Source of the DNA: Antedon bifida
Taxonomy: Eukaryota; Echinodermata; Crinoidea; Comatulida; Antedonidae
NCBI GenBank assembly: GCA_963402885.1
Contig: OY727103.1
Coordinates: 16,270,085-16,334,084 of the forward strand
Direction of reading: 5' to 3'
Length of the DNA stretch: 64,000 bases
The position numbers and the translations under genes were made by a program. The notes under the pieces were generated by a model. That model had not been told where the DNA came from, did not search any database, and was given only the letters and a program-made list of their open reading frames with translations. How positions within the stretch are numbered: the first letter of the stretch is position 1; each line of letters starts with the position of its first letter. Positions 475-21,728 of this stretch are shown here, in pieces.

Positions 475-1296
475 ATGGCGAAATTCGCAGCGCCAGCCAA
501 TTTTAACTTTTCCCAACCGGCGGCATTGCCCGAGTGGCGCCTCCGCTTTAAACGATATCGAATGGCTACAAAGCTACACAAGGAAGACGGCGATATACAA
601 GTTAGTACCTTAATATATGCGATGGGGATGGAGGCTGAAACCATCCTCAAATCTTTTACCTTCACCGAAGATGAGGACAAACAAAATTACATTAAAGTAA
701 GAGATAAATTTAACGAACATTTTATCCCCAAAATAAACGTGATTCACGAACGGGCAAAATTCTTCCAACGACAGCAACACGAGGGAGAAACCGTCGAGGA
801 GTACGTGCGTGAACTATATGATATGGCTGAAAAATGTGATTTTCAAAGCCCAGCGGTCAAAAGCGAAAACATCAGGGATAGAATTGTCGTTGGTCTAAAA
901 GACAAAAAGGTTTCAAAGGAACTTCAACTCATGACAAAGCTTACACTTGAGGGCGCTATACAATTAGCAAGAAATGCTGAACTTGTTGATAAACAAATGG
1001 CAAACCAACTGGATTTTAGTTCATCCAGCAAAGTCGAAGCAGCTATTGCAAGCGTAGGACGTGGTAGACAAACCAGCAGATACGGACCTAGGGTAAGCGA
1101 ACCTAGAATAAGTAATGACAACAAAAACTATAAATATAACCGTACTGGTGGAAGAAACACCCAACAATGTGGCCGGTGCGGATATGTACATCAAAGTACA
1201 GCCTGTCCAGCAAAAAGTGCAGAATGCCGTCGTTGCAACAAAAAGGGACACTTTGCAAAATGTTGCCACACAAAGGAGTGGGGGAACTATCATTGA
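475..1296 (+). CDS. gag: gypsy-A Gag (capsid/nucleocapsid)
   Basis: 273-residue retrotransposon Gag. Residues about 1-190 are a helical capsid-like region. The C-terminus has two closely spaced cysteine clusters: CGRCGYVHQSTAC, then CRRCNKKGHFAKCC, which is a CCHC zinc knuckle of the RNA-binding type. The first Met follows the LTR and primer site without an intervening long ORF. Its 3' end overlaps the protease frame (from 1115), so the downstream enzymes need a frameshift. The reading frame itself looks intact. Confidence 0.85.
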   Translation: MAKFAAPANFNFSQPAALPEWRLRFKRYRMATKLHKEDGDIQVSTLIYAMGMEAETILKSFTFTEDEDKQNYIKVRDKFNEHFIPKINVIHERAKFFQRQQHEGETVEEYVRELYDMAEKCDFQSPAVKSENIRDRIVVGLKDKKVSKELQLMTKLTLEGAIQLARNAELVDKQMANQLDFSSSSKVEAAIASVGRGRQTSRYGPRVSEPRISNDNKNYKYNRTGGRNTQQCGRCGYVHQSTACPAKSAECRRCNKKGHFAKCCHTKEWGNYH

Positions 1297-1666
1297 CAAT
1301 GAACCAGTTGAGGAGGAGGAGGAGGAGGAGTACTTGTTAGATACTGTCACATGTAATGATAAAGATGAGGAGCCTTGGCTAGTAAATTTGAAAGTTGGAA
1401 ACACTACGATCAAATTCAAAATTGATTCAGGAGCTGATGCTACAATAATATCCGAACATGCATATAATCAGCTAAAGCCAAAACCGAAGTTAACTCCAAC
1501 ACACATTATTCTCAAGAGCCTAACAACAAAATTAGTGTCACTAGGCAAGTTTACAGTCAAAACAATGTATAACAATGAAAGTTACACATTTGATATTCAT
1601 GTGACTAGAGGAACTATGAGTAATCTATTGAGTCGCTACACGTCTGATGGGGCTTATTACCGCTAA
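1115..1666 (+). CDS. gypsy-A aspartic protease region
   Basis: The reading frame overlaps the end of gag by about 180 bp. The meaningful part starts near 1380, with a retropepsin core: the catalytic IDSGADATI triad at about residues 103-111, preceded by the usual beta strands. The acidic run just before it is a linker. The annotated Met is unlikely to be used; translation would come by frameshift from gag. The frame ends at 1666 and RT continues in another frame, so one mutation or frameshift separates them. Confidence 0.7.
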   Translation: MTTKTINITVLVEETPNNVAGADMYIKVQPVQQKVQNAVVATKRDTLQNVATQRSGGTIIDNEPVEEEEEEEYLLDTVTCNDKDEEPWLVNLKVGNTTIKFKIDSGADATIISEHAYNQLKPKPKLTPTHIILKSLTTKLVSLGKFTVKTMYNNESYTFDIHVTRGTMSNLLSRYTSDGAYYR

Positions 1667-2063
1667 CATACAGGAGATCAATAGTACCACTATTGGACTG
1701 TGGAAAACTGAACCGGTAAAAATTCATCTAAAAGAAGGAGCTATCCCGTACCACATTAACGCACCGCGGAGAGTACCATTACCTCTACTGCCTAAGGTGG
1801 AAAAAGAGTTACAGAAAATGGAAGAAGCCGGTGTGATTGAAAAGGTTACTGAGCCTACAGAATGGTGTGCTCCGATGGCGGTAACTCTAAAAAAGTCTGG
1901 GGATGCTCGTCTATGCGTTGATTTATGCCAACTGAACAAATCCGTCCAAAGAGAGAGATACATTCTTCCAACGATAGATGATATAACACACAAGTTGGCT
2001 GGCGCCACAGTCTTCTCAGCGTTAGATGCAACTAGTGGCTATTATCAGGTTCCGTTATGCTAA
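1647..2063 (+). pseudogene. gypsy-A reverse transcriptase, N-terminal fragment
   Basis: Contains the RT entry motifs: a helix ending GVIEKV, then WCAPMAV, LCVDLCQLNKSV and FSALDATSGYYQVPL (RT fingers and the first palm Asp in the ALDA motif). It ends at a stop right after the palm A motif. The rest of RT, including the YxDD motif, the thumb and most of RNase H, is absent. The next recognisable residues at 2076 belong to the RNase H C-terminus, so an internal deletion lies at about 2060-2076. Confidence 0.85.
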
Positions 2064-2075
2064 CGACGACTAATC

Positions 2076-2297
2076 ATGAGGCTAATGAGATACAACCCCA
2101 AAGCAAAACATGTACCTGGGAAGGATATGGTTATTGCAGACACGTTGTCCAGAAGCCCTATAAACACAAATGAATCAAACACAGAGCAAGCTGTAGCACT
2201 CTATTTAGAGTCAATAACAAACACCTGGTCAGTCTCTCCATCAAGACTTAAGCGGATATTAAGGAAGCAACTAACCGTGAATGCCAAACGCTCATGA
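2076..2297 (+). pseudogene. gypsy-A RNase H C-terminal tail and linker
   Basis: Short frame with the characteristic RNase H/integrase junction: a basic stretch, then HVPGKDMVIADTLSRSP. It picks up after the internal RT deletion and ends at a stop at 2297. The following integrase zinc-binding region (about 2280-2640) can be followed only across frameshifts: HDGHQGV near 2464 and a CSHCQLYK-type CxxC near 2568. Confidence 0.8.
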
Positions 2298-2741
2298 AAG
2301 TCATATTGGAAGGATGGCCAAAGCATTTCAGCGACACTCCTGATAGCATAAAACCATTGTATAGTTTAGGAAGTCACTTCTCTACTGATGATGGAATTAT
2401 AACCTTTGATGATAAGATATACATCCCCACTGTTTATGAGAAGGGAAATCTTACAGAGAATTCATGACGGACACCAAGGTGTTACAAAATGTAGAGAGCG
2501 GGCAAAATCATGTGTTTGGTGGAAGGACAACAACAAGCAAGGACATAGCTAACTTTGTTGAAAAATGTAGTCACTGTCAACTCTACAAGAGAACACAGAA
2601 GAAAGAGCCATTAATAACAACCGACCCTGGCAACGAATAGCTACCGACCTATGTGAGTTTCAAAACAACCACTACCTTATAATATCCGATTACTTTTCAA
2701 GATATATTGAAATCACAAACCTTAAAAAAGACACAACAAGC

Positions 2742-3500
2742 ATGAGAGTAGTAGAAGCGATTAAACCTGTTTGTGCTAGATGGGGAATCCCTGAAACGGT
2801 CATCTCCGACAATGGACCCCAGTTCACTTCACGTCAATTTAAACTATTTGCAGAAGAATTTGGGTTTCACCACGTAACAACCAGCCCACACTTCGCACAA
2901 GCAAATGGTACAGCAGAGCGTGCAGTCCAAACAGCGAAAACTATGCTAAGACAAACAGACCCAACGTTGGCACTTATGATATATCGATCAACGCCCATTG
3001 AAGCAACAGGCTATAGCCCTGCACAATTGATAATGGGACGCCAACCAAAGACGACGCTACCTATACGTGTAAAGAAGCTTCAACCAGAATGGCCTAGCAT
3101 AAACAAAATAAAGGAAAAAGATAGAGAAACAAAGAAACGTTACGAGCACTTTTGCAACAAACGATACGGTGCCAAATCACTACCAGAATTGAAACCGGGT
3201 GACGTTGTACGTGTTAAGACATGCCACGATAAAATTTGGTCGAGTCCAGTAAATGTTGTAAGTGAAACAGATCAGCCAAGATCCTACATTGTCCAGACCT
3301 CAAGCAGACAACTAAGGAGCAATCGTCAAAACTTACAGCAAAACACAGGTCACACTGATAGCCACCTAGAACAATATCAAAACCGTATTCCAGAAACCAA
3401 CAACAATACTTCAACCGACGTAGCATCACCACAACCAAACCAGAGCTACACAACTCGCGCTGGACGACGAGTGAAGTCAGTCAACAAACTTGACTTGTGA
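2742..3500 (+). CDS. gypsy-A integrase core and C-terminus (fragment)
   Basis: Carries the DDE core segments ISDNGPQFTS (second Asp) and FAQANGTAERAV (the glutamate region), followed by a C-terminal DNA-binding region with LKPGDVVRV and a polar tail. The first Asp of the triad (the YFSRYIE neighbourhood, near 2690) lies upstream of this Met in the same region, so the true domain starts earlier. The tail ends just before the 3' LTR flank. Confidence 0.83.
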   Translation: MRVVEAIKPVCARWGIPETVISDNGPQFTSRQFKLFAEEFGFHHVTTSPHFAQANGTAERAVQTAKTMLRQTDPTLALMIYRSTPIEATGYSPAQLIMGRQPKTTLPIRVKKLQPEWPSINKIKEKDRETKKRYEHFCNKRYGAKSLPELKPGDVVRVKTCHDKIWSSPVNVVSETDQPRSYIVQTSSRQLRSNRQNLQQNTGHTDSHLEQYQNRIPETNNNTSTDVASPQPNQSYTTRAGRRVKSVNKLDL

Positions 3501-5185: not shown

Positions 5186-6039
5186 TCATCCGTTTTCCAG
5201 TGAGTCTGTGTGAGTTCCAGTGGCTGATCTAGATTTTCTTTTCAGATACCTTTCTTCATTTTCCATACGATATCTTTCTTCACTGTGTACAAGTCCTGCC
5301 TTAATACAATCTTTCCATGATTTTCGGTCATCAGCCTTTTTTTCCCAAGTGTTAACATTGATGTCCATTGCCTTCAAGTCTCTTTTACATGCATCTTTGA
5401 AACGCAAAAGTGGACGTCCTTTGGATCTTTTACAATTCGCTAGCTCACCGTACAACATAACCTTGGAGTTCTTGTATCGTCCATTCTTCTGACATGACCA
5501 AGCCATCGTAGTCTTCGCTGTCGAATTAATGTAAATATCGAAGGAATGTCACATCTATCAAGGATACTGTTGTTTGTTACCCTGTCCTGCCATCTGATAT
5601 TTAAGATAGTCCGGAGACAGCGGAGGTGAAAGACATTTAGTTTCTTTTCTTGTCTAGCATAGGTTGTCCATGATTCAGCTCCATACAAGAGGACGCTAAT
5701 GACACATGCCATATACACTTTTATCTTCACAGCCACTCTAATATTTTTGTTTTCCCAAACACGTGCAGACAACTGACTGAGAGTACTAGAAGCTCTTCTG
5801 ATTCGAATGTTTAGTTCACAATCAAGAGAGTTGTTATAAGTTATAACTGAACCAAGATATGAAAATTTACTAACATTTTCAAGTAGAAGATCTACAATGC
5901 AATAAAACTCCTTCCATAAGATTAGGTTCAAAAGCTCTTTGGAGGACGACTGCAAAGTAAATCCCAAAAAGAAGAGGGGCAAGAACATCTCCTTGTTTTG
6001 TCCCACTCTCGACATCAAATGAGTCAGACACTGCTCCAT
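5186..6039 (-). pseudogene. LINE C-terminal region (two frames)
   Basis: 6039-5440 has FSYLGSVIT, LLYGAESWT and RRLRWLGHVRRMDD, the signature C-terminal stretch of these LINEs. 5506-5186 continues in a shifted frame with KRSKGRPLLRFKDACKRDL and DRKSWKDCI. The change of frame at about 5440-5510 shows decay. Confidence 0.85.
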
Positions 6040-6904
6040 TGTACTTGACAGTAGCTTGCATTCCTTGATGGAAGGATCGGATAATATTTAATAGAGTAGG
6101 TGGACATCCAATTTTCCTTAGGATTTCAAATAGACAGTCTCTATTAATAAGGTCAAAAGCCTTAGTGAGATCGATAAATGCCAGGTAGAGTTGCTGTTTT
6201 TGCTCAACACATTTTTCCTGCAGCTGTCTAATAGAGAATATCATATCAATGGTAGATCTTCCAGAGCGAAAACCACACTGAGAGTCTAGATATACCCTTT
6301 CCGCTAAAGGCAGCAGACGTTGTAGAACTACTTTTCCAAATACTTTTCCACAGATATTAAGCAGAGAAATGCCGCGATAATTATCACAGCAACCACGATC
6401 ACCTTTATTCTTGTACAGAGTGACAATGGATGCATTCTTGAAATCCTGTGGAACTTTACCAAGAGACCAACAGAGACTAATAAGCTCATGCAGATGATGT
6501 ATTAGAGTCAGGCCACCTGCTTTAACAATTTCAGTTGGTATACCATCATCACCAGGAGCCTTGCCTGAAGACAGTTGCTTTACTGCTGATCGTACTTCAT
6601 CCATAGTTGGGTAGGCATCAAGTTCCAACATAGTTGGTAAATTTTGAACATTTTTTAGTTCCTCCTGGGATACAGGCATTTTAGTTTGGTAAACTTCTGA
6701 GTAATGTTCTACCCATCGGTCCATCTGTTTCTTCTGATCGATTATCACATTACCATTTCGGTCTTTAATTTGTGCTGTTTTCTTTTGCACTGGCCCAATG
6801 GCTTTTCGGATTCCTTCATACATTCCCTTGAAGTGCCCTGTATCAGCATCTTGTTGTATCTGAGCACTAAGTTCCTCCCAGTACTCGTTAGTGCACTGGC
6901 GCAC
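5879..6904 (-). pseudogene. LINE reverse transcriptase
   Basis: Contains the non-LTR RT blocks in order: SSGKAPGDDGIPTEIVK, VTLYKNKGDRG, NYRGISLL, CGFRSGRSTIDMIF, AFIDLTKAFDLINR (catalytic Asp block A) and SGTKQGDVLAPLLF. The frame breaks just before the second catalytic motif (YADD region), so it is not functional. Upstream, 7199-6888 encodes the spacer between endonuclease and RT in another frame. Confidence 0.85.
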
Positions 6905-7348
6905 AACTCGTTCTCAATGACGGCAGTAACTTTTCAGACTTTTCTTCAAACCAGTCTTGGTTGTTTTTTATTTTCTTACCAAACACTTCTATAGCAGAGT
7001 TATAAATTGCAGTTTTCATTTTCCCCCAGTATTCTTCAATATTTTTGCACTCATCTTGCATAGCAAGATTTTTTGCTAATTGATGTTCAAACTTGTTTCC
7101 TTGACATTGATCTTCCGAAGAGGGTGATGTTTGGTTTTTGGTCTTTGCTTTTGCACAATTTTTAGTCGACTGCAGACCAGAGAGTGGTCTGTTTCGCAAA
7201 CTGCACTATGAAACGTATGAGTATTTTGAACATCATTTAAGGAAGAACGGCGTGTGATTATTAAGTCGAGCTGATGCCAGTGTTTAGACCTAGGATGTCT
7301 CCATGAAACTTTGTGAGATGTCTTTGATTTGAAAAAGTGTGTGTGTAT

Positions 7349-8079
7349 GATACCGTAATATCATACTTATGTAAGCGTATGCGCATTCGTTGTAATCTTA
7401 AAGGACCGTCAGCAAGAGGCTTCTTGAATATTGCCAAGGGCTTGTGATCAGTTTCTACCTCCACTGTCTGTCCGTAGATAAATTGGTGAAAACGCTCGCA
7501 AGCAAAGGTAAGCGCTAAGCATTCCTTCTCTATCTGTGCATAGTTTGTCTCAGTAGGTTTCATAGCGCGAGAAGCGTATGCCACTGGTTTCCATTCTTCC
7601 GTTTCTTTCTGCAACAGGACTGCACCTAGTCCATCTTTTGAAGCATCGGCTGATACTTTACACTTGAGCTTAGGATCATAAAAATTTAATACAGGAGCGT
7701 TTGTAAGTAATTTCTTGACTTTAATCAACACTTCCTCCTGAGCAGTTTTCCATACATACTCATTTTTCTCAGATAACAACTGTCGTAATGGTACAGTAAG
7801 ACTTGACAAATCTGGTACAAATTTCGCAAGGTACGTTGCCATACCTAGAAATCGCTGTAGTTCAGACTTTGTTTTTGGAGTTGGCATGTTATTTATAGCT
7901 CTCACTTTAGACGGATCAGGTTTTATTCCTTCATTAGTTATCAGATCCCCCAAGAACACTAACTTGTCCATACCAAACTCACATTTATGTTTGTTTAACT
8001 TAAGTTTATTGGATTCTACTATGTGTAACACTTTATTGAGTCTATTATCGTGTTGTTTTTTTGTCTTTCCCCCAGACAA
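7349..8079 (-). pseudogene. gypsy-B RT thumb and RNase H
   Basis: Minus-strand segment with FLGMATYLAKFVP, then the RNase H motifs ADASKDGLGAVLLQ (catalytic Asp) and YAQIEKECLALTFACERFH (catalytic Glu), TDHKPL and LRLQRMRIRL. The frame leaves gypsy-B at 7348 and runs 30 residues into the LINE before a stop at 7261; those last residues are chimeric. Confidence 0.87.
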
Positions 8080-8314
8080 TTATGTCATCCAGCATTGTAT
8101 TGACACCTTCCATTGATTCGAATAACTCATATATCTTCTGATGATATGCTTCAGGAGCCCTATTGACCCCAAAAGGTAATCTCTTATAGACATATCTCCC
8201 AAAAGGCGTTATAAAACAAGTTAAGTTGCAGCTGTTTTCTTCCAGCGGTATTTGCCAGAATCCAGCTGCCGCGTCCAATTTACTAAACACTTTAGCATTA
8301 GTAAATTCTGCCAT
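8045..8314 (-). pseudogene. gypsy-B RT palm
   Basis: Carries FSKLDAAAGFWQIPL (palm A), FGRYVYKRLPFGV and the catalytic loop as TMLDDIIVWG, where most relatives have (Y/V)xDD. It overlaps the next frame by about 35 bp; a frameshift between them breaks the enzyme. Another break separates it from the upstream gag-pro frame at 8355. Confidence 0.85.
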
Positions 8315-8354
8315 AATCTCTTCTATTCTTGGTAACTACTACCATGCTATTAAC

Positions 8355-9422
8355 TCAATTTGTAGGCTGTTTAATTTTCTCAATTACTCCTAACCTTTTC
8401 ATACGGTCTAATTCATCTTTTACTTTGTTTCTTAGCTTAAAAGGCACTTTGCGACAGGCATTCTGTACTGGTTTGATGAATTCATCAACAAATATCTTAT
8501 GCTTTGAAGGAAGACACCCTAAACCTTTGAAAACTTCAGGAAATTTGCCTATTATTTCTTGTGTTGTGTGAACTTCATTGCTATCAATGTTAGATGCCAT
8601 GTTAAGCAATTTTATTTTTAGCTCCTTACAAGCTGCCAGACCTAACACTGGTTTGTGTGTTACACTATCTAGTGGCTTGGTTATTACAAAAGGTAGTTTA
8701 TGAATACATCCATTATGTTTGATGTCCAGGACACAAGTTCCTTTTATAGGAATGGCAGTGCCTGTATAACCTTTCAATCTCACCCCTGTATCAGTGATGG
8801 ACGGCTTATCTTTCAATTTTGTATAATATTCCCATGGTAATACGTTTACCTGGGACCCAGTGTCTACCTTTAGTTTAATTTCTAAACCATTTACTTCAAC
8901 TGATATGGTCCAATCACTATTAGATCCGATATTCAACACGTCTACATCAACTATAAACTCATCCTCCTCAGAAGACTCTACTACTAGTTCAATTGTTTTA
9001 TCTTTTTGTTTTTTAGACTTTGATTTGCAGAAATTTGACCAATGGTTTTTTCCCTTACATTTATGACAGATTGATCCCCATGCAGGGCATGCTCTAGGTC
9101 CATGTGTTCTTCCACACCCCAAACAACTTTGTTGGCGACCCCTTTGAAACTTATCTTTACTTCTTTGGGCCTTTCTTTTTTCGACCCCATCAACTGTCTT
9201 ACCATTCATTGCCACTAAACTCTCCTGTGATGACTCATAGTTTAATGCAATATTGATTGCTTTATCTAGTGTCAACTCATCACCTACTTCTAGGCATTTC
9301 TCTCTGACTTTTGTGTCTGCAGCTTTTAACACTACCGCATCACGCAACATTCTTTGTTCATCTGTATATTCACATCGTTTAATAAGAACTCTTAAGTCTG
9401 ATGATGATGATGAATGATTCAT
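8355..9422 (-). pseudogene. gypsy-B Gag C-terminus, protease and RT start
   Basis: One open frame on the minus strand covers the Gag C-terminal helices, a zinc knuckle pair (CLGCGRTHGPRAC then CHKCKGKNHWSNFC), an acidic linker, an aspartic protease with KVDTGSQVNVLP, and the RT entry GVIEKIKQPT. Gag and Pol are thus fused without a frameshift, unlike gypsy-A. The frame is joined upstream to 9483-9770 by a frameshift near 9430-9480. Confidence 0.87.
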
Positions 9423-9482: not shown

Positions 9483-9770
9483 CTACATATTCTTCAAATT
9501 TCTTAAACTTCTTAAACACTCTAATGTGGCATTTTCAGCTGCCACTGCGGGATTATCTCCTGCAGCTTCTACAGCCGGAAGCCAGGTAAACATAGAGTAA
9601 ACTTCTCTACCCCTATTACCCATGTACGTCATGAGATAACTTACTTTCTGTAACTCCGTCTTGTCTGATAACGGACCATTAAAAGTAAAATAACAATGGG
9701 TTTTAAATCTATTTAATTCTTTGACAAGATTAGGACTGTTCCAGTCCATGCTAGGCTTTCTGTCTGCCAT
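9483..9770 (-). pseudogene. gag: gypsy-B Gag N-terminus
   Basis: Starts MADRKPSMDW at 9770 and continues as a helical capsid region (FKTHCYFTFNGPLSDK). This is the first Met after the primer binding site. It is broken near 9483 and continues in another frame toward 9422. Confidence 0.75.
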
Positions 9771-9992
9771 GATGAATGTAGTGTATGTAATTGACTTTTT
9801 AAACGTAACTCAACCGTGAATGTACAACAAAATCCTGTAGGCCTATGTTTTTCAGTGCAAAGATACTAAACACACTCCCGTCTGAGGCAGGGCTAACCGT
9901 TCACCACACAAATAATGTATAGCTACTTTACCTTCAGAAATCGAAAGCTTATAGTACCAACTACACCAAAATATATTACCAAACATATAGAC

Positions 9993-10142
9993 CACACACT
10001 TCTGACATCATGTTATGTTTTGATGGGTTTGGTGGGTGAATGATTACAATAATAACAGACGATTACAACTTCATATATAGTCTCAGGATCCATTTATTCA
10101 GACGCCATATTGTACACTGTTTGTTGTGCACCTCACCAGAGG
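9993..10142 (-). repeat. gypsy-B 5' LTR (main part) and primer binding site
   Basis: On the minus strand the LTR runs from 10142 to 10011 and ends in AAACATAACA. It contains an AATAAA signal near 10095. TGATGTCAGAAGTGTGTGG follows at once (10010-9992), a degenerate form of the TGGTGTCAGAAGTGGG primer site common in this superfamily. The first part of the LTR lies across the foldback insertion, at 14836-14852 (starting TGTATAATG). The start is inferred because the partner LTR is outside the window. Confidence 0.68.
10134..10142. repeat. Target site duplication of foldback element (CACCAGAGG), left
   Basis: CACCAGAGG occurs directly before the left terminus at 10143 and again at 14827-14835 directly after the right terminus. 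The 9-bp length fits foldback and Mutator-like elements. Confidence 0.88.
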
Positions 10143-10229
10143 AGGTATATTCAGAGTGTCATTTCGACGATCGAGCATTCTCTACTTCTACGGAGCGCCA
10201 TTTATGCCTTTATTTACTTCCGAAATAGA

Positions 10230-10760
10230 ATAGTACTACAGTAACTGCTCCAGTGGACCAAATTTAGCACCGGTGGAGCCCAGTGATATAAAATAGAAAT
10301 AAGTCACTAATTTTAAACTCTTTTTGTATGTTAATACACTGTGCTCAAGTGGACCCAATTTGGCGCCAGTGGAGCCCAGTGATATAAAATAGAAATAATT
10401 CACTAATTTTAAAATCTTTTCGTATGTTAATACACTGTGCTCAAGTGGACCCAATTTGGATCCAGGGGAGCACAGTGATATAAAATAGAAAAAAGTCACT
10501 GAATTTTAGTATCTTTTCGTATGTTAATACACTGTGCTAATTTAGAGCCAGTGGAGCACAGTGATATAAAATAGAATAAGTCACTGAATTTTAATATCTT
10601 TTCGTATGTTAGTACACTGTGCTCAAGTGGACCCAGTTTGGAGCCAGGGGAGCACAGTGATATAAAATAGAAAAAAGTCACTAAATTATAATATCTTTTC
10701 GTATGTTAATACACTGTGCTCAAGTGGACCCAATTTGGCACCAATTGGAGCACAGGGAAA
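10230..10760. repeat. Tandem ~97-bp units in left foldback arm
   Basis: Five units start with CACTGTGCTC at about 10336, 10433, 10530, 10615 and 10722. Each contains an internal imperfect palindrome (CACTGTGCTC...GAGCACAGTG) and an AT-rich spacer with TTTTCGTATGTTAATA. The mirrored set lies at about 14200-14700. Confidence 0.85.
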
Positions 10761-11429
10761 TAGTCACATACAATAACATCGAGAAAAACTACTTCTGGAA
10801 TTTAAAAATGTTTCAAACTTGGTATATATGTTCAATATCGGTTACTCCATCCGTAAACCAAAAGAAAAATTAGTTTCAAGCCACATCAGTGATTTTAATA
10901 ACTTGCGTTCGCTTATTATGAAAAAACATACAATTCCGACACATATTATGTTAAACTCTAATATTGATTTTAACAAAAGAAAACGGTTAGGAATTCGATT
11001 TTTTCCCTGTAAATTTAGCAACTTTAATTAAGAATATACCAAGAAATATATATTGAAATCCAGGAGTATTTTTTTTTTACAAAAGAAATGTTCGTATGTT
11101 AATACACTGTGCTCCAGTGGCTCCAATTTGGCGCCAGTGGAGCACAGGGAAATAGTCACATACAAAAACTTATAGAAAAAATATTTATCAAATTCAAAAA
11201 TATTTCAAACTTGGTATATAAGTTCAATATCGGTTACTCCATCCGTAATGCAAAAGAAAAATTAGTTTCAAGCCACATCAGTGATTTTAATAACTTGTGT
11301 TTGTCTAAGATAAATACTTATGAAAGAACATACAATTCCAACACATTTTTTTTTTAAACATTAGCGATTAAAAAAAAGACATATGTTAAATATATGAATT
11401 ATGTAGTAACATATTGAACGTGTAGTAAC

Positions 11430-11607
11430 TGTTTGGGTATGTTGCTTCGTTAATACCACAATAATAAAACTATACACAAAGATGTGCTATAACTATTACT
11501 TTAATAATAACTCAAGTCAAACGAACAATATGGCAGTCTACGCACGTTGTCTCTCTCTTCCTCCAACTACATACGTCATACGTATGGGCGGCCTTAAGGG
11601 CCTCACA
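11430..11607 (-). repeat. gypsy-C 3' LTR
   Basis: 178 bp. Its outer end abuts GTAAC; its inner-facing start TGTGAGGCCCTTA recurs at the 5' end of the element (13526 downward). It includes AATAAA-like and TATA-like stretches. The 5' LTR has been almost entirely deleted. Confidence 0.65.
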
Positions 11608-11886
11608 CCTCCCCTTAGATCCAAAGTGCTTATGGCCATTTTGGATCTTCAATCAATCTTGCAGGGGCCTTAATATAATGGTGCTGCGCATATACCTATG
11701 CCTTTCGGGCGGGTCCACTGGTACAAAGCCAATGGATTGCGGCGTACGTTTACGTATAAAGCGTCGGTTTCTAACTAACACCCTCTCCCCAATGTTTTGA
11801 TGAAGTATCTCCTGTTTGGTTTTATATCAATTATTGTTCCGTAAATGTTAAACAGTTTATCTAAATGATTATATACTGCAACATGG

Positions 11887-12330
11887 TTATGAAGCTTTGG
11901 TGTGAAGATCAAAGTATTGTTTCTCTTTCACCTTCCCCTTTTCCAAGATGATTTGGGCTTCCTTAATATCTTTCTGGAAGTCGGCATTAAAGGCGCGATG
12001 GTGCGTTGGTAGTGTACCCTGAATAGGTCGTCCAAATAACTTTATAGCAGGAGATAATCCATCTTTCCTACATGGAATATTTCTGTAGTGCAAGAGCGCT
12101 TTTGCTAACTGCTAACTTTGTTTGGTAATGTATGATTTGAAGATGATGAGTGGATAAGCTTTTTCATGGATTTAACTGTAGCTTCAGCTTTCCCATTAGA
12201 TTGTTGGTGATATGGTGAACTGCCAGTTATTAGCGAACTGTTTAAAACCATTGAAGGTGAATTGTGGTCCTCCGTCGCACCAAAATCAACCACGATCAGA
12301 TAATTTCTACCATTCACAAAGGCAAAATCT
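11887..12330 (-). pseudogene. gypsy-C integrase fragments
   Basis: 12317-12105 keeps NYLIVVD (first Asp region) and SPYHQQSNGKAEATVK (the glutamate region). The IxxDNGPQF segment is degraded to a D-N-S-P remnant. 12093-11887 keeps a C-terminal core with LSPAIKLFGRPIQGTLP. Stops and frameshifts separate the two pieces. RT is largely absent upstream, so integrase joins almost directly to the RT N-terminus. Confidence 0.75.
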
Positions 12331-12399
12331 CTGTTTCTCTAATGGAATTTGGTGATATCCTTTCAGCACATCGATTACTGTAAAGAACTGAGAGCATCT

Positions 12400-13129
12400 G
12401 ATGCAGCAATATCTGCTACAGCTTCCTGTGGAGTAGTATGAGGATAATACTCGCGTTTTACACTTTTATTTAGTTGAGATAAGTCAACACACATTCTGAT
12501 TTTTTCAGTGTCCTTTTTTGGTGCAATGACAATTGGAGCACACCAATTGGAATGTTCAGTAGTCTTGACAATGATGCCTTGGCTTTCAAGCGTTTCAAGC
12601 TCTGCTTTCAGCTTATCATTGTAGGCATACGGTATCTTTCGTAGGGTGCTAACACAAAATTGTTAGCATCATCTGCTATCTTGACTGTGAATTTTTCACC
12701 AGGCATCGAGCGAATTATACCATCAAACACTTCTGGAAATTCTTTGGACAAGTTAGTCAGATTGAAACGTGGCGCAGCAATCAGACTAATGTAAGTAACT
12801 GATGCAACGTTTGCGTGACACAGTGGCTCAGGGTAAGCTGGTGAGAGAAATCCCAACTGCTTTGATGCATCCCATGATAAAATAATGTCATCGATGTCAT
12901 CAGAAAAATAAATTGTAACACTCACGCAACGTTCGTCGGTTGAAACGATTAGTGGTAATTTTCCTGCAATCTGGATTCTGCTACCTTCGACAGTTTCAGG
13001 TCGTATTTCGCAAGGGATGAGATTCTCTACATGGTCATTAATTTGTTCGAGCAGTGATGTAGGAGCGAGACAAATATCTGAACCGGAATCAGGAAGAGCA
13101 AGAGTGTCTACGGATCGTACTGACTGCAC
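12400..13129 (-). pseudogene. gypsy-C protease and RT N-terminal fragment
   Basis: 13129-12608 encodes a protease-like ALPDSGSDICL core and a linker, then the RT entry around EVFDGIIRSMPGEKF. Beyond a frameshift near 12610 the minus strand still reads the next RT motifs (NWCAPIVIAPKK and RMCVDLSQLNKSVKREYY at about 12560-12440). The palm is then lost. Confidence 0.75.
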
Positions 13130-13503
13130 GTATTGATCCGTATCACTCCATTTTGGGGCTTAGAGCGGCATACGGTTGAAAAATGTCCGCGTTTCCTACA
13201 CGTATTACACATAGCATCTGCAGCAGGGCAGTGCTGCCTTCCACGTTGGTGGACCTTGCCACAGTAGTTACATTTATCATTATTACAAGATGGTTGTTGC
13301 TTACTCTGCTGCTTGATAATATGCTGCTTTTCTGGTTTTTTACTGTGATGTTTTCTCATATTATTGGACTGTCTTACAGCCGCAGTAGTGCTTGTCTGGT
13401 CTAGGCTTAGCTGTTGAGGATTTATTTCATCCCTTTGTCGTTTAGCGGCCTCTAACGCACATACCGTTGATATGGTTTTGGTCAAATCCAATTTGTCAAT
13501 CAC
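13108..13503 (-). pseudogene. gypsy-C Gag C-terminus with zinc knuckles
   Basis: Minus-strand fragment with a Gln/Lys-rich linker and cysteine clusters CNNDKCNYCGK and CNTCRKRGHFSTVC, the CCHC nucleocapsid type. The N-terminal Gag region is missing; the fragment begins just inside the truncated 5' LTR. Confidence 0.75.
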
Positions 13504-13539
13504 TAAGAGTTTTTAAGGGCCTCACAGTAACCTATTGAA

Positions 13540-14826
13540 CATATACTACCAAATTTCAAATGTGTAGGACAATTATTTTATGACGATCAAAATTAAAAGT
13601 TTAAAAAATGTCTTGGAATTCTATGTTCTATCATAAATATACATTTTAAACAAACGAAAATTACTAAAATCACTGATATGGCTTGAAACTATTTTTTCTT
13701 TTGCTTTACGGATAGAGTAACCGATATTGAACATATATACCAAGTTGTAATATTTTTGAAATCCAGAAGTATTTTTTCTCGATGTTTTTGTATGTGATTA
13801 TTTCCCTGTGCTCCCATTGGTGCCAAATTGGAGCAACTGGAGCACAGTGTATTAACATACGAACATTTCTTTTGTAAAAAAAAAAATACACCTCGAATTC
13901 AATTATATTTCTTTGTATATTTTTAATTTTAGTTGCTCAATATACAGGGCAAAAATCGAATTCCTAACCGTTTTTTTTTTGTAAAAATCATTATTAGAGT
14001 TTAACATAGGCCTATGTGTCGGAATTGTATGTTTTTTCATAAGTATTAACTTAAGCAAACGGAAGTTATTAAAATCACTGATGTGGCTTGAAACTATTTT
14101 TTCTTTTGGTTTACGGATGGAGTATCGGATATTGAACATAATCATACCAAGTTTGAAATATTTTTAAATTCACAAAGTATTTTTTCTCGATGTTTTTGTA
14201 TGTGACTATTTCCCTGTGCTCCAATTGGTGCCAAATTGGGTCCACTTGAGCACAGTGTATTAACATACGAAAAGATATTATAATTAATTGACTTTTTTCT
14301 ATTTTATATCACTGTGCTTATGGCGCAAGCGCCAAATTGGGTCCACGTAAGCAGAGTGTATTAAATACGAAATGATATTAAAATTCATTGACTTTTTTCC
14401 ATTTTATACAACTGTGCTCCACTGGCGCCAAATTAGGTCTACTTGAGCACAGTGTATTAACATACGAAAATATATTAAAATTAGTGACTTATTTTATATC
14501 ACTGTGCTCCACTGGCTCTAAATTAGCACAGTGTATTAACATACGAAAAGATTAAATTTCAGTGACTTTTTTCTATTTTATATCACTGTGCTCCACTGGC
14601 TCCAAATTGAGTCCACTTAAGCACAGTGTATTAACATACGAAAGATATTAAAATTAGTGACTTATTTCTATTTTATATCACTAATAATGCTCCACCGGTG
14701 CTAAATTTGGTCCACTGGAGCAGTTACCGTAGTACTATTTCTAATTCGGAAGTAAATAAAGGCATAAATGGCGCTCCGTAGAAGTAGAGAATGCTCGATC
14801 GTCGAAATGACGCTCTGAATATACCT
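13540..14826. repeat. Right inverted arm of foldback element
   Basis: Mirror image of 10143-11380. It ends with the 90-bp tip complementary to the left terminus (...CTCTGAATATACCT). It contains the units with GAGCACAGTG spaced about 97 bp, and the longer inner block around 13700-14200. Open frames here (for example 13706-13891 and 13903-14145 minus) are chance readings of repeat DNA. Confidence 0.85.
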
Positions 14827-14835
14827 CACCAGAGG

Positions 14836-14852
14836 AGGGCTCACATTATACA
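14836..14852 (-). repeat. gypsy-B 5' LTR, outer fragment
   Basis: Immediately right of the foldback duplication. On the minus strand it reads TGTATAATGTGAGCCCT and joins 10142 once the foldback element is removed, giving an LTR of about 149 bp. Inferred, because the other LTR is outside the window. Confidence 0.55.
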
Positions 14853-14869
14853 GAGGGTTCACTTCTTAA

Positions 14870-15200
14870 ATGATTAAAGATGATAAGTGATCTATCAACC
14901 TTTACTTATCGTTCATCTAAAAGCTGGAATGAACTTCCAAATGAATTAAAAATTAACTTTAAAGATTTTTCAATAACTTCATTCCAAAATACAATTAGTA
15001 CTCAACATTTTTAACTGAATTTTTTGTTTTCTAAAATTGATTGTTATTTTTAATGTATATTTCAATTACTCTTTGTCTTTATTTTATTATGTTTGTTATA
15101 TTTTCAATTACTGTACCACTTTGGAAATCAGTGCACTAGTACTGAAAGTGCTTGCAGAATAAAGAAAGAATAAATAAATAAATAAATAAATCACAGTGTC
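14870..15200 (+). mobile_element. LINE 3' end with (TAAA)n tail
   Basis: The plus strand reads a C-terminal LINE motif (SKSWNELPNELK then a Phe-rich end and stop), a 3' UTR with GTACTGAAAGTGCTTGC, and a tail of AATAAATAAATAAATAAA ending about 15190. Strongly 5'-truncated. Confidence 0.65.
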
Positions 15201-15204
15201 ATAC

Positions 15205-16205
15205 ACAAGTTAATTATGTATGTTGTAAAGCAAGCAGATTGCTTGGTTTCATTTCGAAATGTAGTAAAAATATGTCCTGGTTAGCTATGTTGAACTTATA
15301 CAAAGCTCTATTACTTCCAGCGGTTACCTACTGTTGTTCAATGTGGGCACCATTTGAGAAATCGCATATCAATAGAATAGAAAGTATACAAAGGAAAGCA
15401 ACAAGGATAATAATGTTTAGAAAGGAAGGTTCCTGGGACACATCTTATTTTCATAGGTTGAAAGTGCTTGAATTATTATCTATTGATGACTTGTTTAAAT
15501 TATTGTAATTGTAGTTTTTGCGTCAGGGAGTTGAGTAATTAGATGTTTTTGCCCTACTCTGACGTAAAAACTACAATTACAATCCTGTTGGTGCAGTACC
15601 CGCTGCTTACTTGGGCTCGAATCTAGCCACTAGCCATCAGCGCAAGCTCGGTGGTCTAGAGGTATGAACGCCAGGCTAGTGATCTGGAGGTCGTGGGTTC
15701 GAGTCCCACCCGAGAACTACTTGCGAATTTTTTCGCAAGTATTCTCAAATGTACTTAGTATAAAGTACAAATTACGTCAGAGTAGGGCAAAAACATCTAA
15801 TTGTTTAAATTACATAGACTTTCATTAGGATTTAAGGTGTTGAAAGGTTACTGTCCCCATTCTTTCAATGAGTATATTAAAACTAGTGAAAGATGTCCGG
15901 GTAGGCTTTTACGTTGGAATTCGAAAGGCAATACTTTTCATAATTTTGTATTTGTTTCCTTTCCTAGACTATGGGAGCAAATACTAAATGACATAAAAGA
16001 TTCACAAACGATTTCAATATTTAAGGCTGCTCTAACAAAACACTATATTTCATGTTATGTATAGTTTATTTGTATTTTTCTTGTATATGGTTTTATCTTA
16101 ACTGTTTGTATTGTATGGAGTGAGTGCAGAATCTGTTTGGGCTTTAGCCTATTCTCATTCCTGGTTATTGTTACATTGATGACCGAATAAATATTATTAT
16201 TATTA
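15205..16205 (+). mobile_element. LINE 3' end (RT C-terminal part), split by a SINE
   Basis: Coding part at 15239-15502: NLYKALLLPAVTYCCSMWAP and the RIESIQRKATRII motif of LINE RT C-termini. It resumes at 15813 and runs to a stop at 16062-16064 (PHSFNEYI and FPRLWEQILNDI). A 3' UTR ends in AATAAATATTATTATTATTA near 16200. The interruption is exactly the SINE at 15503-15800; without it and one duplication copy the frame is continuous. Confidence 0.8.
15503..15800 (+). mobile_element. tRNA-derived SINE with palindromic ends
   Basis: 298-bp insertion flanked by the 12-bp duplication TTGTTTAAATTA (15491-15502 and 15801-15812). A tRNA-like domain lies at about 15645-15716. It has a 5-bp anticodon stem CCAGG/TCTGG around loop CTAGTGA (AGT anticodon, threonine-like), a perfect T stem GTGGG/CCCAC around TTCGAGT, and a five-pair acceptor CTCGG/CCGAG. 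The first 80 bp form a hairpin (GTAATTGTAGTTTTT...AAAAACTACAATTAC). The block TAGATGTTTTTGCCCTACTC recurs inverted at the right end. Confidence 0.8.
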
Positions 16206-17373
16206 AATGTATATAATATTTTATTCTATTATCAGGTATTGTGGGTATAACTTTTAGATGTTAAAGAAATTTGTTGTATCGGAAATTGTTTAAATAATAT
16301 GTCATACTGAAATCCATGTCATACTCAAAAGTTCAGTTAATCCGCCTGAACTATAGTGGGTTTTATGCTTAACTGCCAATTGTAGGTAGCTTCTCCAATG
16401 GAATTGTCTTTTCACACTACAATCGCAAGACACACTGCAAAATAAATTATGAATATTTTCATTCATTTTCATTCTAAATGTTAGCTGACATCCCATCCCT
16501 AATTATGGTTGTATAGCCTGTGTCTTCTTGTATGTCAACCCCATGTATATGAAGTAGTAAGAGTAGGAATCATTCACATGTCTTGATATGTGTATATATT
16601 TGGGATAGATCCATTGATGTAGTCGGTTTTAATATACAGCTACACAGATTTGATAACTCATAAAATAATTCAGACGGTATAATCAACAAATACTTTACTG
16701 TAGTTATTTATTATCTGGATAGTACAGTAGAATACAAGTTAAAAATTAAAAAAATTAATTAATTAATATTTTTCAAGAATTATTTTATGATGATAATTCA
16801 CAAATTTCACTAATTTCAAGTGAATTGCTTTCAAAATTTATCTCCGAGCTTCGTGTTTGGATGGAAAAAAAAAAGTGATAATATCGCAGCAAACACAGAT
16901 AAAATTCTTTCTAGGAGGTTTTACATAGGCAATTTTTCATTGATTTAGTTAAGTTAGAAATTGTTGCTAATCTGAAACTCATATTTCAAATAGTCATAGA
17001 CTGTTGATTCAGAAAGTACTTAAATCATTAGGGGAAACATACATTTTTTAAGGGACAATATTACTATGACATAGCCTACAATTAGCAAGAGTATGTATAG
17101 GTCTATGGTCTATGGTAACTTAGTCAAAGTTACATATTTTGATACTAGTCAGACGTGTCTTTATTTAAAACGGGGATAATACTAAACTAACTACTAAATT
17201 TTAATTTTATTATTATATAGGTAATGACACAATCAGCAATATGTGATAGTGGGTATAAAAGTCTAAACAAACACCTAGAAACAGCATAGAATTATCCAAA
17301 TCAATATTATATATTACATCCCACTCTAATATTGCTTTTGATAGAAAACAACGTCTCACTAGCAGTCTCGCGG
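16206..17373. other. AT-rich intergenic stretch, no gene seen
   Basis: No exon, RNA gene or recognisable repeat is visible on either strand. Short open frames have no family features. Confidence 0.6.
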
Positions 17374-18090
17374 AGGTATATTCAGAGTGTCATTCTGACG
17401 ATGGAGCATTCTCTATGGAGCGCCATTTATGCCTTTATTAACTTCCGAAATAGAAATGATATAAAATAGAAATAAGTCACTAATTTTAATATAATTTGTA
17501 TGTTAATACACTGTGCTCAAGTGAACCCAATTTTGCACAAGGGGAGCACAGTGATATAAAATAGAATAAGTCACTAAATTTTAATATTTTTTCGTATGTT
17601 AATACACTGTGCTCAAGTGGACCAAATTTGGCGCCAGTGGAGCACAGTGATATAAAATAGAAATAAGTCACCTGCATTTTAATATCTTTTTGTATAATAC
17701 AGTGTGCTCAAGTGGACACAATTTGGCACCAGTTGAGCAGAGCAAAATAGTCACATCCAAATACATAGAGAAAAAAAATACTTCTGAAATTTAAAAAAAA
17801 TATTTCAAACTTGGTATATATGTTCAGTATCGATTAGTCTATCCGTAATGCAAAAAAAAAAATTAGTTTCAAGCCACATCAGCTGATTTTAATAACTTGC
17901 TTCTGTATAACTTAAATACTTATGAAAGAACATAGGCCTACAATTCTAACACATTTTTTAAAACTCTAATAATGATTTTGACAAAAACAAAACAAAACCG
18001 GTAGGAATACGATTTTTTCTGTAAATTGAGGACCATAAATTAAAAATATACTAAGAAATATAATATTGAATTCGAGAGCAGGGTATTTGA
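17374..18090 (+). mobile_element. Half copy (left arm) of the foldback family
   Basis: Starts AGGTATATTCAGAGTG exactly like the termini of the 10143-14826 element and keeps the same order: about 90-bp tip, CACTGTGCTC units, then the longer inner block ending near 18090. No right arm follows, so it is a solo or truncated arm. The tip differs by small deletions. Confidence 0.82.
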
Positions 18091-18326
18091 AAAGCGACGA
18101 GATAATCACTGGCCGAAAAAGGATGTCTACAGCATTCTGGGCAATACAGCTTGACTGTGGATCTCAAGAGACTGAATAGCCTATACATTTATACCCACAT
18201 CCAATAAGTTGTTAAAATAAGGATAAGAAACTTGGGAGGAGTACAAAATGTTACAGAGAAATTCACAACTCATTTTTTAATTTAATATAAACTTTTATTT
18301 AATGTTTTAAATTTTTTTATTTGTAG

Positions 18327-18647
18327 TGGCCAATGAATAGAGATTTACCTTACTCTACTTCAGTTCAAGATAGAAATTCACCATTTGCTCAAAACATGGA
18401 TCATTCTGGCATTACACAATCGGCCAGCTCTGAGTTACACCGATTTCCTGATGAACGAGTTTCTGAATTGCAACTGAACACGTTTGCCGGGAATATGGGC
18501 GCAGATTGGAAAAGCTTCATTAGGAGTCTTGGATTGAAAGAGAATGACATCTTTCATGCGAGTGGCAATGCTAACACACCAAGGGACCAGATATTTAGAA
18601 AAAATCATGAAAATTACAATGAAACTGTTCGTGTACTCGAACATTGA
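18327..18647 (+). pseudogene. Death-domain-like terminal exon with premature stop
   Basis: A plausible 3' splice site (T-rich tract then TTGTAG) precedes 18327. The frame gives a polar N-terminal part and then, from about residue 48, a death-domain-like fold: LNTFAGNMGADWKSFIRSLG, LKENDIF and a final helix NYNETVRVLEH. A TGA at 18645 falls where death domains usually have the Trp of a WL pair; the next codons read LDVDTKQ before a second TGA (18669-18671). The death domains that it resembles act in innate immune and apoptosis adaptors. No upstream exon of the same gene was recognised. It could be a decayed copy or a slightly shortened real exon. Confidence 0.5.
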
Positions 18648-19755: not shown

Positions 19756-21728
19756 GGCAGGCTACTTGTACGCAGGCTAATTGGACGCAGGCTACTTGTA
19801 CTTGGATGCAGGCTACTTGTACTTGGACGCAGGCTACTTGTACATGGGCTACTTGGATGCATGCTACTTGGACGCAGGCTACTTGTACTTGGACGCAGGC
19901 TACTTGTATTTGGACACAGGCTACTTGTACTTGGACGCAGGCTACTTGTATTTGGACGCAGGCTACTTGTATTTGGACGCAGGCTACTTGTATTTGGACG
20001 CAGGCTACTTGTACTTGGACGCAGGCTACTTGTATTTGGACGCAGGCTACTTGTATTTGGACGCAGGCTACTTGTACTTGGACGCAGGCTACTTGTACTT
20101 GTATGCTTGCTACTTGTACTTGTACGCAGGCTACTTACTTGGACTCAGGCTACTTACTTGGATGCAGGCTACTTACTTGGACGCAGGCTACTTACTTGGA
20201 CGCAGGCTACTTACTTGGACGCAGGATACTTGTACTTGGACGCAGGCTACTTGTACTTGGACGCAGGCTACTTGTACTTGGACGCAGGCTACTTGTACTT
20301 GGACGCAGGCTACTTACTTGGACGCAGGCTACTTGTATTTGGATGCAGGCTACTTACTTGGACGCAGGCTACTTGTACTTGGATGCAGGCTACTTGTACT
20401 TGGACGCAGGCTACTTGTACATGGGCTACTTGGATGCATGCTACTTGGACGCAGGCTACTTGTACTTGGACGCAGGCTACTTGTATTTGGACACAGGCTA
20501 CTTGTACTTGGACGCAGGCTACTTGTATTTGAACGCAGGCTACTTGTATTTGGACGCAGGTTACTTGTATTTGGACACAGGCTACTTGGACGCAGGCTAC
20601 TTGTATTTGGACGCAGGCTACTTGTACTTGGACGCAGGCTACTTGTATTTGGACGCAGGCTACTTGTATTTGGACGCAGGCTACTTGTATTTGGACGCAG
20701 GCTACTTGTACTTGGACGCAGGCTACTTGTACTTGTATGCTTGCTACTTGTACTTGTACGCAGGCTACTTACTTGGACTCAGGCTACTTACTTGGATGCA
20801 GGCTACTTACTTGGACGCAGGCTACTTACTTGGACGCAGGCTACTTACTTGGACGCAGGATACTTGTACTTGGACGCAGGCTACTTGTACTTGGACGCAA
20901 GCTACTTGTACTTGGACGCAGGCTACTTGTACTTGGACGCAGGCTACTTGTATTTGGATGCAGGCTACTTACTTGGATGCAGGCTACTTGTACTTGGACG
21001 CAGGCTACTTGTACATGGGCTACTTGGATGCATGCTACTTGGACGCAGGCTACTTGTACTTGGACACAGGCTACTTGTATTTGGACACAGGCTACTTGTA
21101 CTTGGACGCAGGCTACTTGTATTTGGACGCAGGCTACTTGTACTTGGACGCAGGCTACTTGTACTTGTATGCTTGCTACTTGTACTTGTACGCAGGCTAC
21201 TTACTTGGACTCAGGCTACTTACTTGGATGCAGGCTACTTACTTGGACGCAGGCTACTTACTTGGACGCAGGCTACTTACTTGGACGCAGGATACTTGTA
21301 CTTGGACGCAGGCTACTTGTACTTGGACGCAGGCTACTTGTACTTGGACGCAGGCTACTTGTACTTGGACGCAGGCTACTTGTATTTGGACGCAGGCTAC
21401 TTATATTTGGACGCAGGCTACTTGTATTTGGACGCAGGCTACTTGTACTTGGACACAGGCTACTTACTTGGATGAAGGCTACTTGTACTTGTATGCTTGC
21501 TACTTGTACTTGTACGCAGGCTACTTACTTGGACGCAGGCTACTTACTTGGACGCAGGCTACTTACTTGGACGCAGGATACTTGTATTTGGACGCAGGCT
21601 ACTTGTACTTGGACGCATGCTACTTGTACTTGGACGCAGGCTACTTGTACTTGGACGCAGGCTACTTGTATTTGGACACAGGCTACTTGTACTGGACGCA
21701 GGCTACTTGTACTTGGACTACGCAGTAG
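19756..21728. repeat. 2-kb minisatellite, 21-bp and 19-bp units, with higher-order repeats
   Basis: Built on GGACGCAGGCTACTTGTACTT (21 bp; variants with GTATTT) and a 19-bp form GGACGCAGGCTACTTACTT. Marker variants recur in the same order: TACATGGGCTACTTGG at 19841, 20418 and 21012; GTATGCTTGCTAC at about 20101, 20735, 21167 and 21491. This gives higher-order blocks of roughly 320-630 bp. The unit contains no stop in any forward frame, so three overlapping ORFs of up to 640 codons appear; these are not genes. Confidence 0.95.

What the first reader, a model, noticed from the sequence alone, without database searches (positions are those of the whole stretch)
10143..14826. Foldback element built of palindromic 97-bp subrepeats with 9-bp target duplication and no transposase
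Long mirrored arms composed of tandem units that are themselves imperfect palindromes, unique tips, and a 9-bp duplication. Foldback families with repeat-built arms are known (Drosophila FB, sea urchin TU), but the units here look particular to this genome. The only coding content is a foreign gypsy remnant, so mobilisation would need an outside transposase, perhaps of the Mutator type suggested by the 9-bp duplication.
Basis: partly seen in the sequence, partly recalled or inferred. Interest (0 to 1): 0.75.

Follow-up and report, generated by a model that had tools for sequence, protein, structure and literature searches.

The report
Foldback transposon built of palindromic repeats
What looks like an animal genome carries a mobile DNA element that is one long imperfect palindrome made of smaller palindromic repeats, later split by a retroelement; no transposase gene was found in it, and it looks like a further member of the known foldback transposons.

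Summary
A foldback element lies at 10142-14827: a ~104-bp tip, five ~97-bp units per arm, then inner 393/408-bp units, all mirrored. The gypsy remnant is a later guest at 11430-13526, with its own 5-bp duplication (GTAAC), at the centre of symmetry. With the guest left out, the element is 2,584 bp and aligns with its own reverse complement end to end (85.5% over 2,660 columns): practically no loop, no recognisable gene. Marked units stand in the same order in both arms, so a whole arm was probably copied in inverted form after the array existed. A second, one-armed copy with the same tip lies at 17373-about 18076. The '9-bp duplication' is real but its length cannot be fixed: the target reads CCTC-ACCAGAG-GAGG and the tip starts GAGG, so 7, 9, 11, 13 and 15 bp all fit. 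Best reading: a non-autonomous cut-and-paste foldback element, mobilised in trans, most likely by a Mutator-type enzyme; that assignment is unproven. No transposase was found and the host genome could not be searched. Probably a new family of a known kind; interest moderate to low.

The parts
10142..14827 (.). whole foldback element as it stands (with the gypsy guest); start may be 10142-10146 and end 14823-14827
   Evidence: inverted arms and tips
10131..10145 (+). left copy of the target duplication zone (CCTC-ACCAGAG-GAGG); 7 to 15 bp of it is the duplication
14824..14838 (+). right copy of the target duplication zone
10142..10245 (+). left tip, unique sequence
   Evidence: (I8)
14723..14827 (-). 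right tip
   Evidence: (I8)
10246..10716 (+). left outer domain: five tandem units L1-L5 (96, 96, 97, 85, 97 bp), imperfect palindromes
14253..14722 (-). right outer domain: five units R1-R5 (99, 95, 79, 96, 101 bp)
10717..11429 (+). left inner domain: L6 (393 bp) and L7 (cut short by the centre), each opening with the palindromic core of the 97-bp unit, then about 350 bp of other sequence
   Evidence: (D6, D9)
13532..14252 (-). right inner domain: R6 (408 bp) and R7 (cut short by the centre)
   Evidence: (D7, D8)
11430..13526 (-). gypsy-type LTR retroelement remnant inserted in the centre; 178-bp LTR at 11430-11607, the other LTR reduced to 14 bp (13513-13526); zinc-knuckle, reverse-transcriptase-like and integrase-like pieces in different frames
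11425..11429 (+). left copy of the 5-bp gypsy duplication GTAAC
13527..13531 (+). right copy of the 5-bp gypsy duplication GTAAC
17373..18076 (+). second, one-armed copy: same tip start, a partial and two full outer units and part of an inner unit; about 50 bp after the tip missing; no right arm seen

Best explanation
A non-autonomous foldback DNA transposon. Shown: without the gypsy guest it is a 2.58-kb near-complete palindrome, tips outside, palindromic ~97-bp units next, 393/408-bp units inside, no loop of note and no recognisable gene; its two ends are flanked by a short direct repeat of the target. Inferred: a transposase supplied by another element recognises the tip, perhaps with the repeated palindromic units as secondary binding sites, cuts the element out and pastes it at a staggered cut. 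A Mutator-type (MULE/Phantom) enzyme is the likeliest source. Also inferred: the arms arose by tandem growth of a unit, then inverted copying of a whole arm, then separate gain and loss of units in each arm. A gypsy element landed at the centre later and decayed.
For: Mirrored arms with tips and target duplication. Element without the guest aligns to its reverse complement 1-2584, 85.5% over 2,660 columns. Same order of marked units in both arms: L1/R1 95% identical, L4/R3 97% with a shared deletion of 11 nt. Second copy with an identical 22-bp tip start and 88.9% over 90 columns. No Pfam family above its cut-off in 17 of 17 stop-free pieces of 55 aa or more that overlap the arms (pieces listed; scanned; four matches at E 0.054-0.086, all far below the curated cut-offs). 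Foldbacks with tandem-built arms and 8-10 bp duplications are assigned to Mutator in Tetris and Tm1; the active MULE Muta1 has repeats in its arms and 8 or 9 bp duplications.
Against: The duplication length is not fixed, so it cannot choose a superfamily. No transposase-bearing relative was seen. Only one two-ended copy is known. The second copy has one arm, so it says nothing on duplication length. Single units fold only modestly better than shuffles. Arm identity along the element is uneven, not a smooth fall from the tip, so constraint on the tip is not shown.
Confidence: 0.82

Rival explanations
1. The same kind of foldback element, but mobilised by a P-superfamily enzyme as in Galileo, with a 7-bp duplication ACCAGAG and a tip starting GAGG.
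For: A 7-bp duplication with tip GAGG fits all three junctions seen. Galileo has long internally repetitive arms, tandem units of ~210 bp in its F subfamily, and 7-bp duplications.
Against: The 9- and 11-bp readings fit the junctions equally. The tip does not start with CA as I recall for P-type ends (recalled, no call).
Confidence: 0.15
2. An inverted tandem-repeat array formed by local rearrangement of a satellite, or an assembly artefact, not a transposon.
For: Both arms and the nearby second copy are made of one satellite-like unit and lie within 8 kb of each other.
Against: Unique tips at both ends, a flanking duplication of at least 7 bp, and the same tip at the second place. Arms differ at ~9% of ungapped columns and in unit lengths and arrangement, which a read or assembly inversion would not give.
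Confidence: 0.04
3. The gypsy element is not a late guest but part of the mobile unit, captured as cargo.
For: It lies at the centre of symmetry.
Against: It has LTR ends and its own 5-bp duplication, and the spacer closes into one palindrome when it is left out.
Confidence: 0.04

Closest known systems
Tetris (Drosophila virilis), PMC4079207 (abstract and two sections read)
   Same: Foldback, no transposase found, three-part arms (flanking domain, tandem units, inner domain), 8-10 bp duplications
   Different: Units ~220 bp, no mention of palindromic units in the parts read; a non-coding middle domain is present
Tm1 (Meloidogyne), Mutator/Foldback, PMC3169594 (passages and part 1 of 2 of the discussion read)
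   Same: Composite arms with internal repeats; non-autonomous members; mostly 9-bp duplications
   Different: ~14-bp units; short asymmetric 7-bp terminal motifs; a member with a Phantom-type transposase is known
Galileo (Drosophila), P superfamily, PMC3573991 (passages read)
   Same: Long internally repetitive arms whose unit number can differ between the two arms; copies made of arms only
   Different: 7-bp duplication; transposase known; units ~210 bp
Muta1 (Aedes aegypti), active MULE, PMC5225508 (passages read)
   Same: Arms with a tip motif followed by subterminal tandem repeats; 8 or 9 bp duplications
   Different: 145-bp arms, 12-bp repeats, encodes a transposase
Sea urchin TU and Drosophila FB elements (recalled; not read here)
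   Same: Foldback arms built of tandem repeats
   Different: Unit sequences and sizes differ as far as I recall; not compared

Membership tests
Foldback (FB-like) DNA transposons, a structural class | Long terminal inverted repeats with internal tandem units | tested here: met
Foldback (FB-like) DNA transposons, a structural class | Flanking target-site duplication | tested here: met
   at least 7 bp, exact length open
Foldback (FB-like) DNA transposons, a structural class | Repeated dispersed copies with constant tips | tested here: inconclusive
   one further copy in the window with the same tip; 0 matches of the tip pattern in viral contigs and genome contigs, collections of viral and prokaryote DNA from which the tool may leave out the window's own genome; host genome unreachable
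Mutator (MULE) superfamily | Duplication of 8-11 bp | tested here: inconclusive
   9 and 11 bp fit, so do 7, 13 and 15; the range is from PMC6446971 (passages)
Mutator (MULE) superfamily | MULE transposase in an autonomous relative with the same tips | not testable with these tools
   The genome search did not complete in 14 tries (last); no transposase domain in 17 stop-free pieces of the arms
P superfamily (Galileo) | 7-bp duplication and P-type transposase | tested here: inconclusive
   7 bp is one of five readings; no transposase domain seen in the arms
Gypsy LTR retrotransposons (the guest) | LTR, short duplication, gag/pol pieces in the order zinc knuckle, reverse transcriptase, integrase | tested here: met
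   LTR and GTAAC; 5 of 8 gypsy-like frames of the same window match it by tblastn, in that order on the minus strand (knuckle 13159-13284, RT 12381-12641, integrase 11914-12282). Frame labels RT and integrase are by eye; no Pfam match for its two longest frames

The most novel reading that the evidence does not exclude
A foldback family that selects targets resembling its own ends: the unoccupied site CCTC-N7-GAGG mirrors the GAGG...CCTC ends, an agreement of eight bases by my count whichever duplication length is right. Together with arms made of palindromes, end recognition and target choice could use the same enzyme-DNA contacts. Against it: the left flank of the second copy has GAGG but not CCTC.
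Probability: 0.08. Interest if true: 0.55.

Novelty: new member of a known kind. Interest (0 to 1): 0.33.

Why it matters
It adds a probably new foldback family, in a host I could not name, with a readable history: unit growth, inverted copying of an arm, unit gain and loss, later gypsy insertion. A nearly loop-free palindrome made of palindromes is an extreme case for asking how such DNA is kept through replication. Its units could also seed satellite DNA, as proposed for Tetris.

Tried and rejected
Looked for the tip in viral contigs and genome contigs: 0 matches each. Looked for tip letters in papers: 0 papers. That it is an animal is inferred from a Tudor domain (above cut-off) and Death and ABC-membrane matches (both just under their cut-offs). 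Tested whether the flanks resemble the tip, which would suggest a nested older copy: right flank, 57 of 1,000 shuffles score as well; left flank, 972 of 1,000; not supported. Looked for a second copy of the flank letters of the one-armed copy, which could be its lost right side: of matches of 8 bp or more, one (8 bp, at 45235), taken as chance. Rfam at gathering cut-off: only a tRNA in 9600-18400. Pfam on 17 stop-free pieces of the arms and borders: four weak matches at E 0.054-0.086, all below cut-off. A palindromic target rule was checked on the second copy: the GAGG side is there, the CCTC side is not (flank letters). An idea that the centre holds a third, worn inner unit was left out: its matches to the arms were 18 bp or shorter.

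Full report
What is there. The window is 36% G+C. Of ten frames scanned with Pfam, a Tudor domain, a Retrotrans_gag and a reverse transcriptase (RVT_1) pass their cut-offs; Death, ABC-membrane and retroviral-type protease matches fall under theirs; four frames have none. I infer an animal genome. At 10142-14827 lies an inverted-repeat element. Its left arm matches its right arm in reverse complement over 1,250 columns at 87.4%; a separate global alignment gives 91.4% identity over 1,249 ungapped columns.

Anatomy of an arm. (i) A tip of ~104 bp, starting GAGGTATATTCAGAG. (ii) Five outer units: L1-L5 of 96, 96, 97, 85, 97 bp and R1-R5 of 99, 95, 79, 96, 101 bp. (iii) Inner units, 393 bp from core to core on the left and 408 bp on the right, each opening with the core of the outer unit (CACTGTGCTC...GAGCACAG) followed by about 350 bp of other sequence; the second inner unit of each arm is cut short by the centre. 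The consensus of 12 outer units (five left, five right, two of the second copy) is an imperfect palindrome: 37 of 58 positions pair around its best centre, in a periodic reading that counts some pairs twice; 0 of 500 dinucleotide shuffles treated alike reach the score. As single-stranded DNA the consensus and two real units fold with z of -2.4, -2.2 and -1.6, so the palindromy is modest per unit. The tip does not fold better than shuffles (z 0.59, 144 of 200 shuffles fold as well).

History of the arms. L1 and R1 are 95% identical; L4 and R3 are 97% identical and share a deletion of 11 nt; L5 joins R5 in the tree with support 0.77. These marked units stand in the same order in both arms. Between the first and the deleted unit the left arm has two units and the right arm one; between the deleted and the last outer unit the left has none and the right one. 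So the array probably existed before one arm was copied in inverted form, and each arm then gained or lost units alone. Several branches of the unit tree are weakly supported. Arm identity in blocks of 100 columns runs 96, 90, 90, 77, 77, 86, 95, 92, 84, 88, 87, 89, 70, then a short last block of 20 in 40. It is highest at the tip but uneven: the two blocks at 77 lie where unit arrangement differs, and the block at 10720 reaches 95. A constraint on the tip is therefore possible, not shown.

The guest. At 11430-13526, minus strand, lies a gypsy-type remnant. One LTR is whole (178 bp, 11430-11607); the other is cut to 14 bp (13513-13526); GTAAC flanks both sides. Eight gypsy-like frames of the same window were compared with it; five match in separate pieces, E 3e-03 to 8e-19, in two frames, in the order zinc knuckle, reverse transcriptase, integrase (frame labels by eye). 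Three of eight gave no match. Its two longest frames have no Pfam match. Leaving the guest and one GTAAC out, the element is 2,584 bp and its whole length aligns to its own reverse complement (85.5%, 2,660 columns, 152 gap positions). So the foldback itself had practically no loop. Stop-free pieces are at most 89 aa in the left arm and 86 aa in the right arm; all 17 pieces of 55 aa or more that overlap the arms gave no Pfam family above its cut-off.

The duplication. Left junction...GCACCTCACCAGAG|GAGGTATATTC. Right junction...GAATATACCTC|ACCAGAGGAGGGCTC. Depending on whether the tip begins at G, A, G, G or T of GAGGT, the duplication is 7, 9, 11, 13 or 15 bp. The reason is that the unoccupied site, CCTC-ACCAGAG-GAGG, mirrors the element's ends. 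Each reading needs the same number of chance agreements (eight bases; my count), so the sequence alone does not choose. The second copy also shows GGAGG before TATATT but lacks CCTC on the far side of its left flank, which favours GAGG being at least partly element. Prior knowledge of foldbacks favours 9 (Tm1: 8-10 bp, mostly 9, in 45 of 53 elements as the paper states; Tetris 8-10 bp; MULEs 8-11 bp); Galileo would favour 7.

The second copy. 17373-18076 starts with the same 22 letters, lacks about 50 bp after the tip, has a partial and two full outer units, and ends inside an inner unit; no other arm is seen in the window. It shows a constant tip at a second place, but not the duplication length.

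Mechanism. Shown: palindromic structure, duplication, lack of a recognisable gene, gypsy insertion with its own duplication. Inferred: cut-and-paste movement by a transposase made elsewhere that binds the tip and perhaps the repeated units; Mutator-type the likeliest (about 0.55 by my estimate), P-type about 0.15, other or unknown the rest. That repeats in the arms may be secondary transposase binding sites is proposed in the Galileo paper.

Novelty. The class is well known. Eight literature searches by topic (one search listed 10 of 16 papers) showed, by titles and abstract starts, no paper on this element, and four strings of tip letters are in no held main text; Repbase was not available, so the family may already have a name there. 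The host genome could not be searched: 14 identical requests did not complete (first, last). I file it as a probable new family of the foldback class, not as a proven Mutator element.

Noticed in passing
window 19781-21718: Long minisatellite, 94 copies of a 21-bp unit (TTGGACGCAGGCTACTTGTAC), open for up to 640 aa, probably a by-product of the repeat.
   Followed up: no
window 475-3500 and 7261-9422: Further gypsy-like frames on opposite strands (Retrotrans_gag above cut-off at 475-1296; protease matches under cut-off at 8355-9422); no DNA match to the remnant inside the foldback.
   Followed up: partly
window 5879-6904: Reverse transcriptase frame (RVT_1, E 9.4e-24), by eye of LINE type.
   Followed up: no
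window 15645-15717: tRNA-Thr (agt) predicted by ARAGORN and matched by Rfam, about 800 bp right of the foldback; gene or SINE head not decided.
   Followed up: no
window 14841-15190: By eye, the right flank of the foldback reads like the end of a LINE frame followed by a TAAA-type tail, so the target may be an older LINE (not tested).
   Followed up: no
window 18333-18647: A 104-aa frame with a weak Death-domain match (E 2.1e-4, just under the cut-off) about 250 bp after the one-armed copy.
   Followed up: no
whole window: The octamer TAGGCCTA occurs 17 times in 64 kb, once in the right arm (14007) and once in the second copy (17933); its meaning was not pursued.
   Followed up: no
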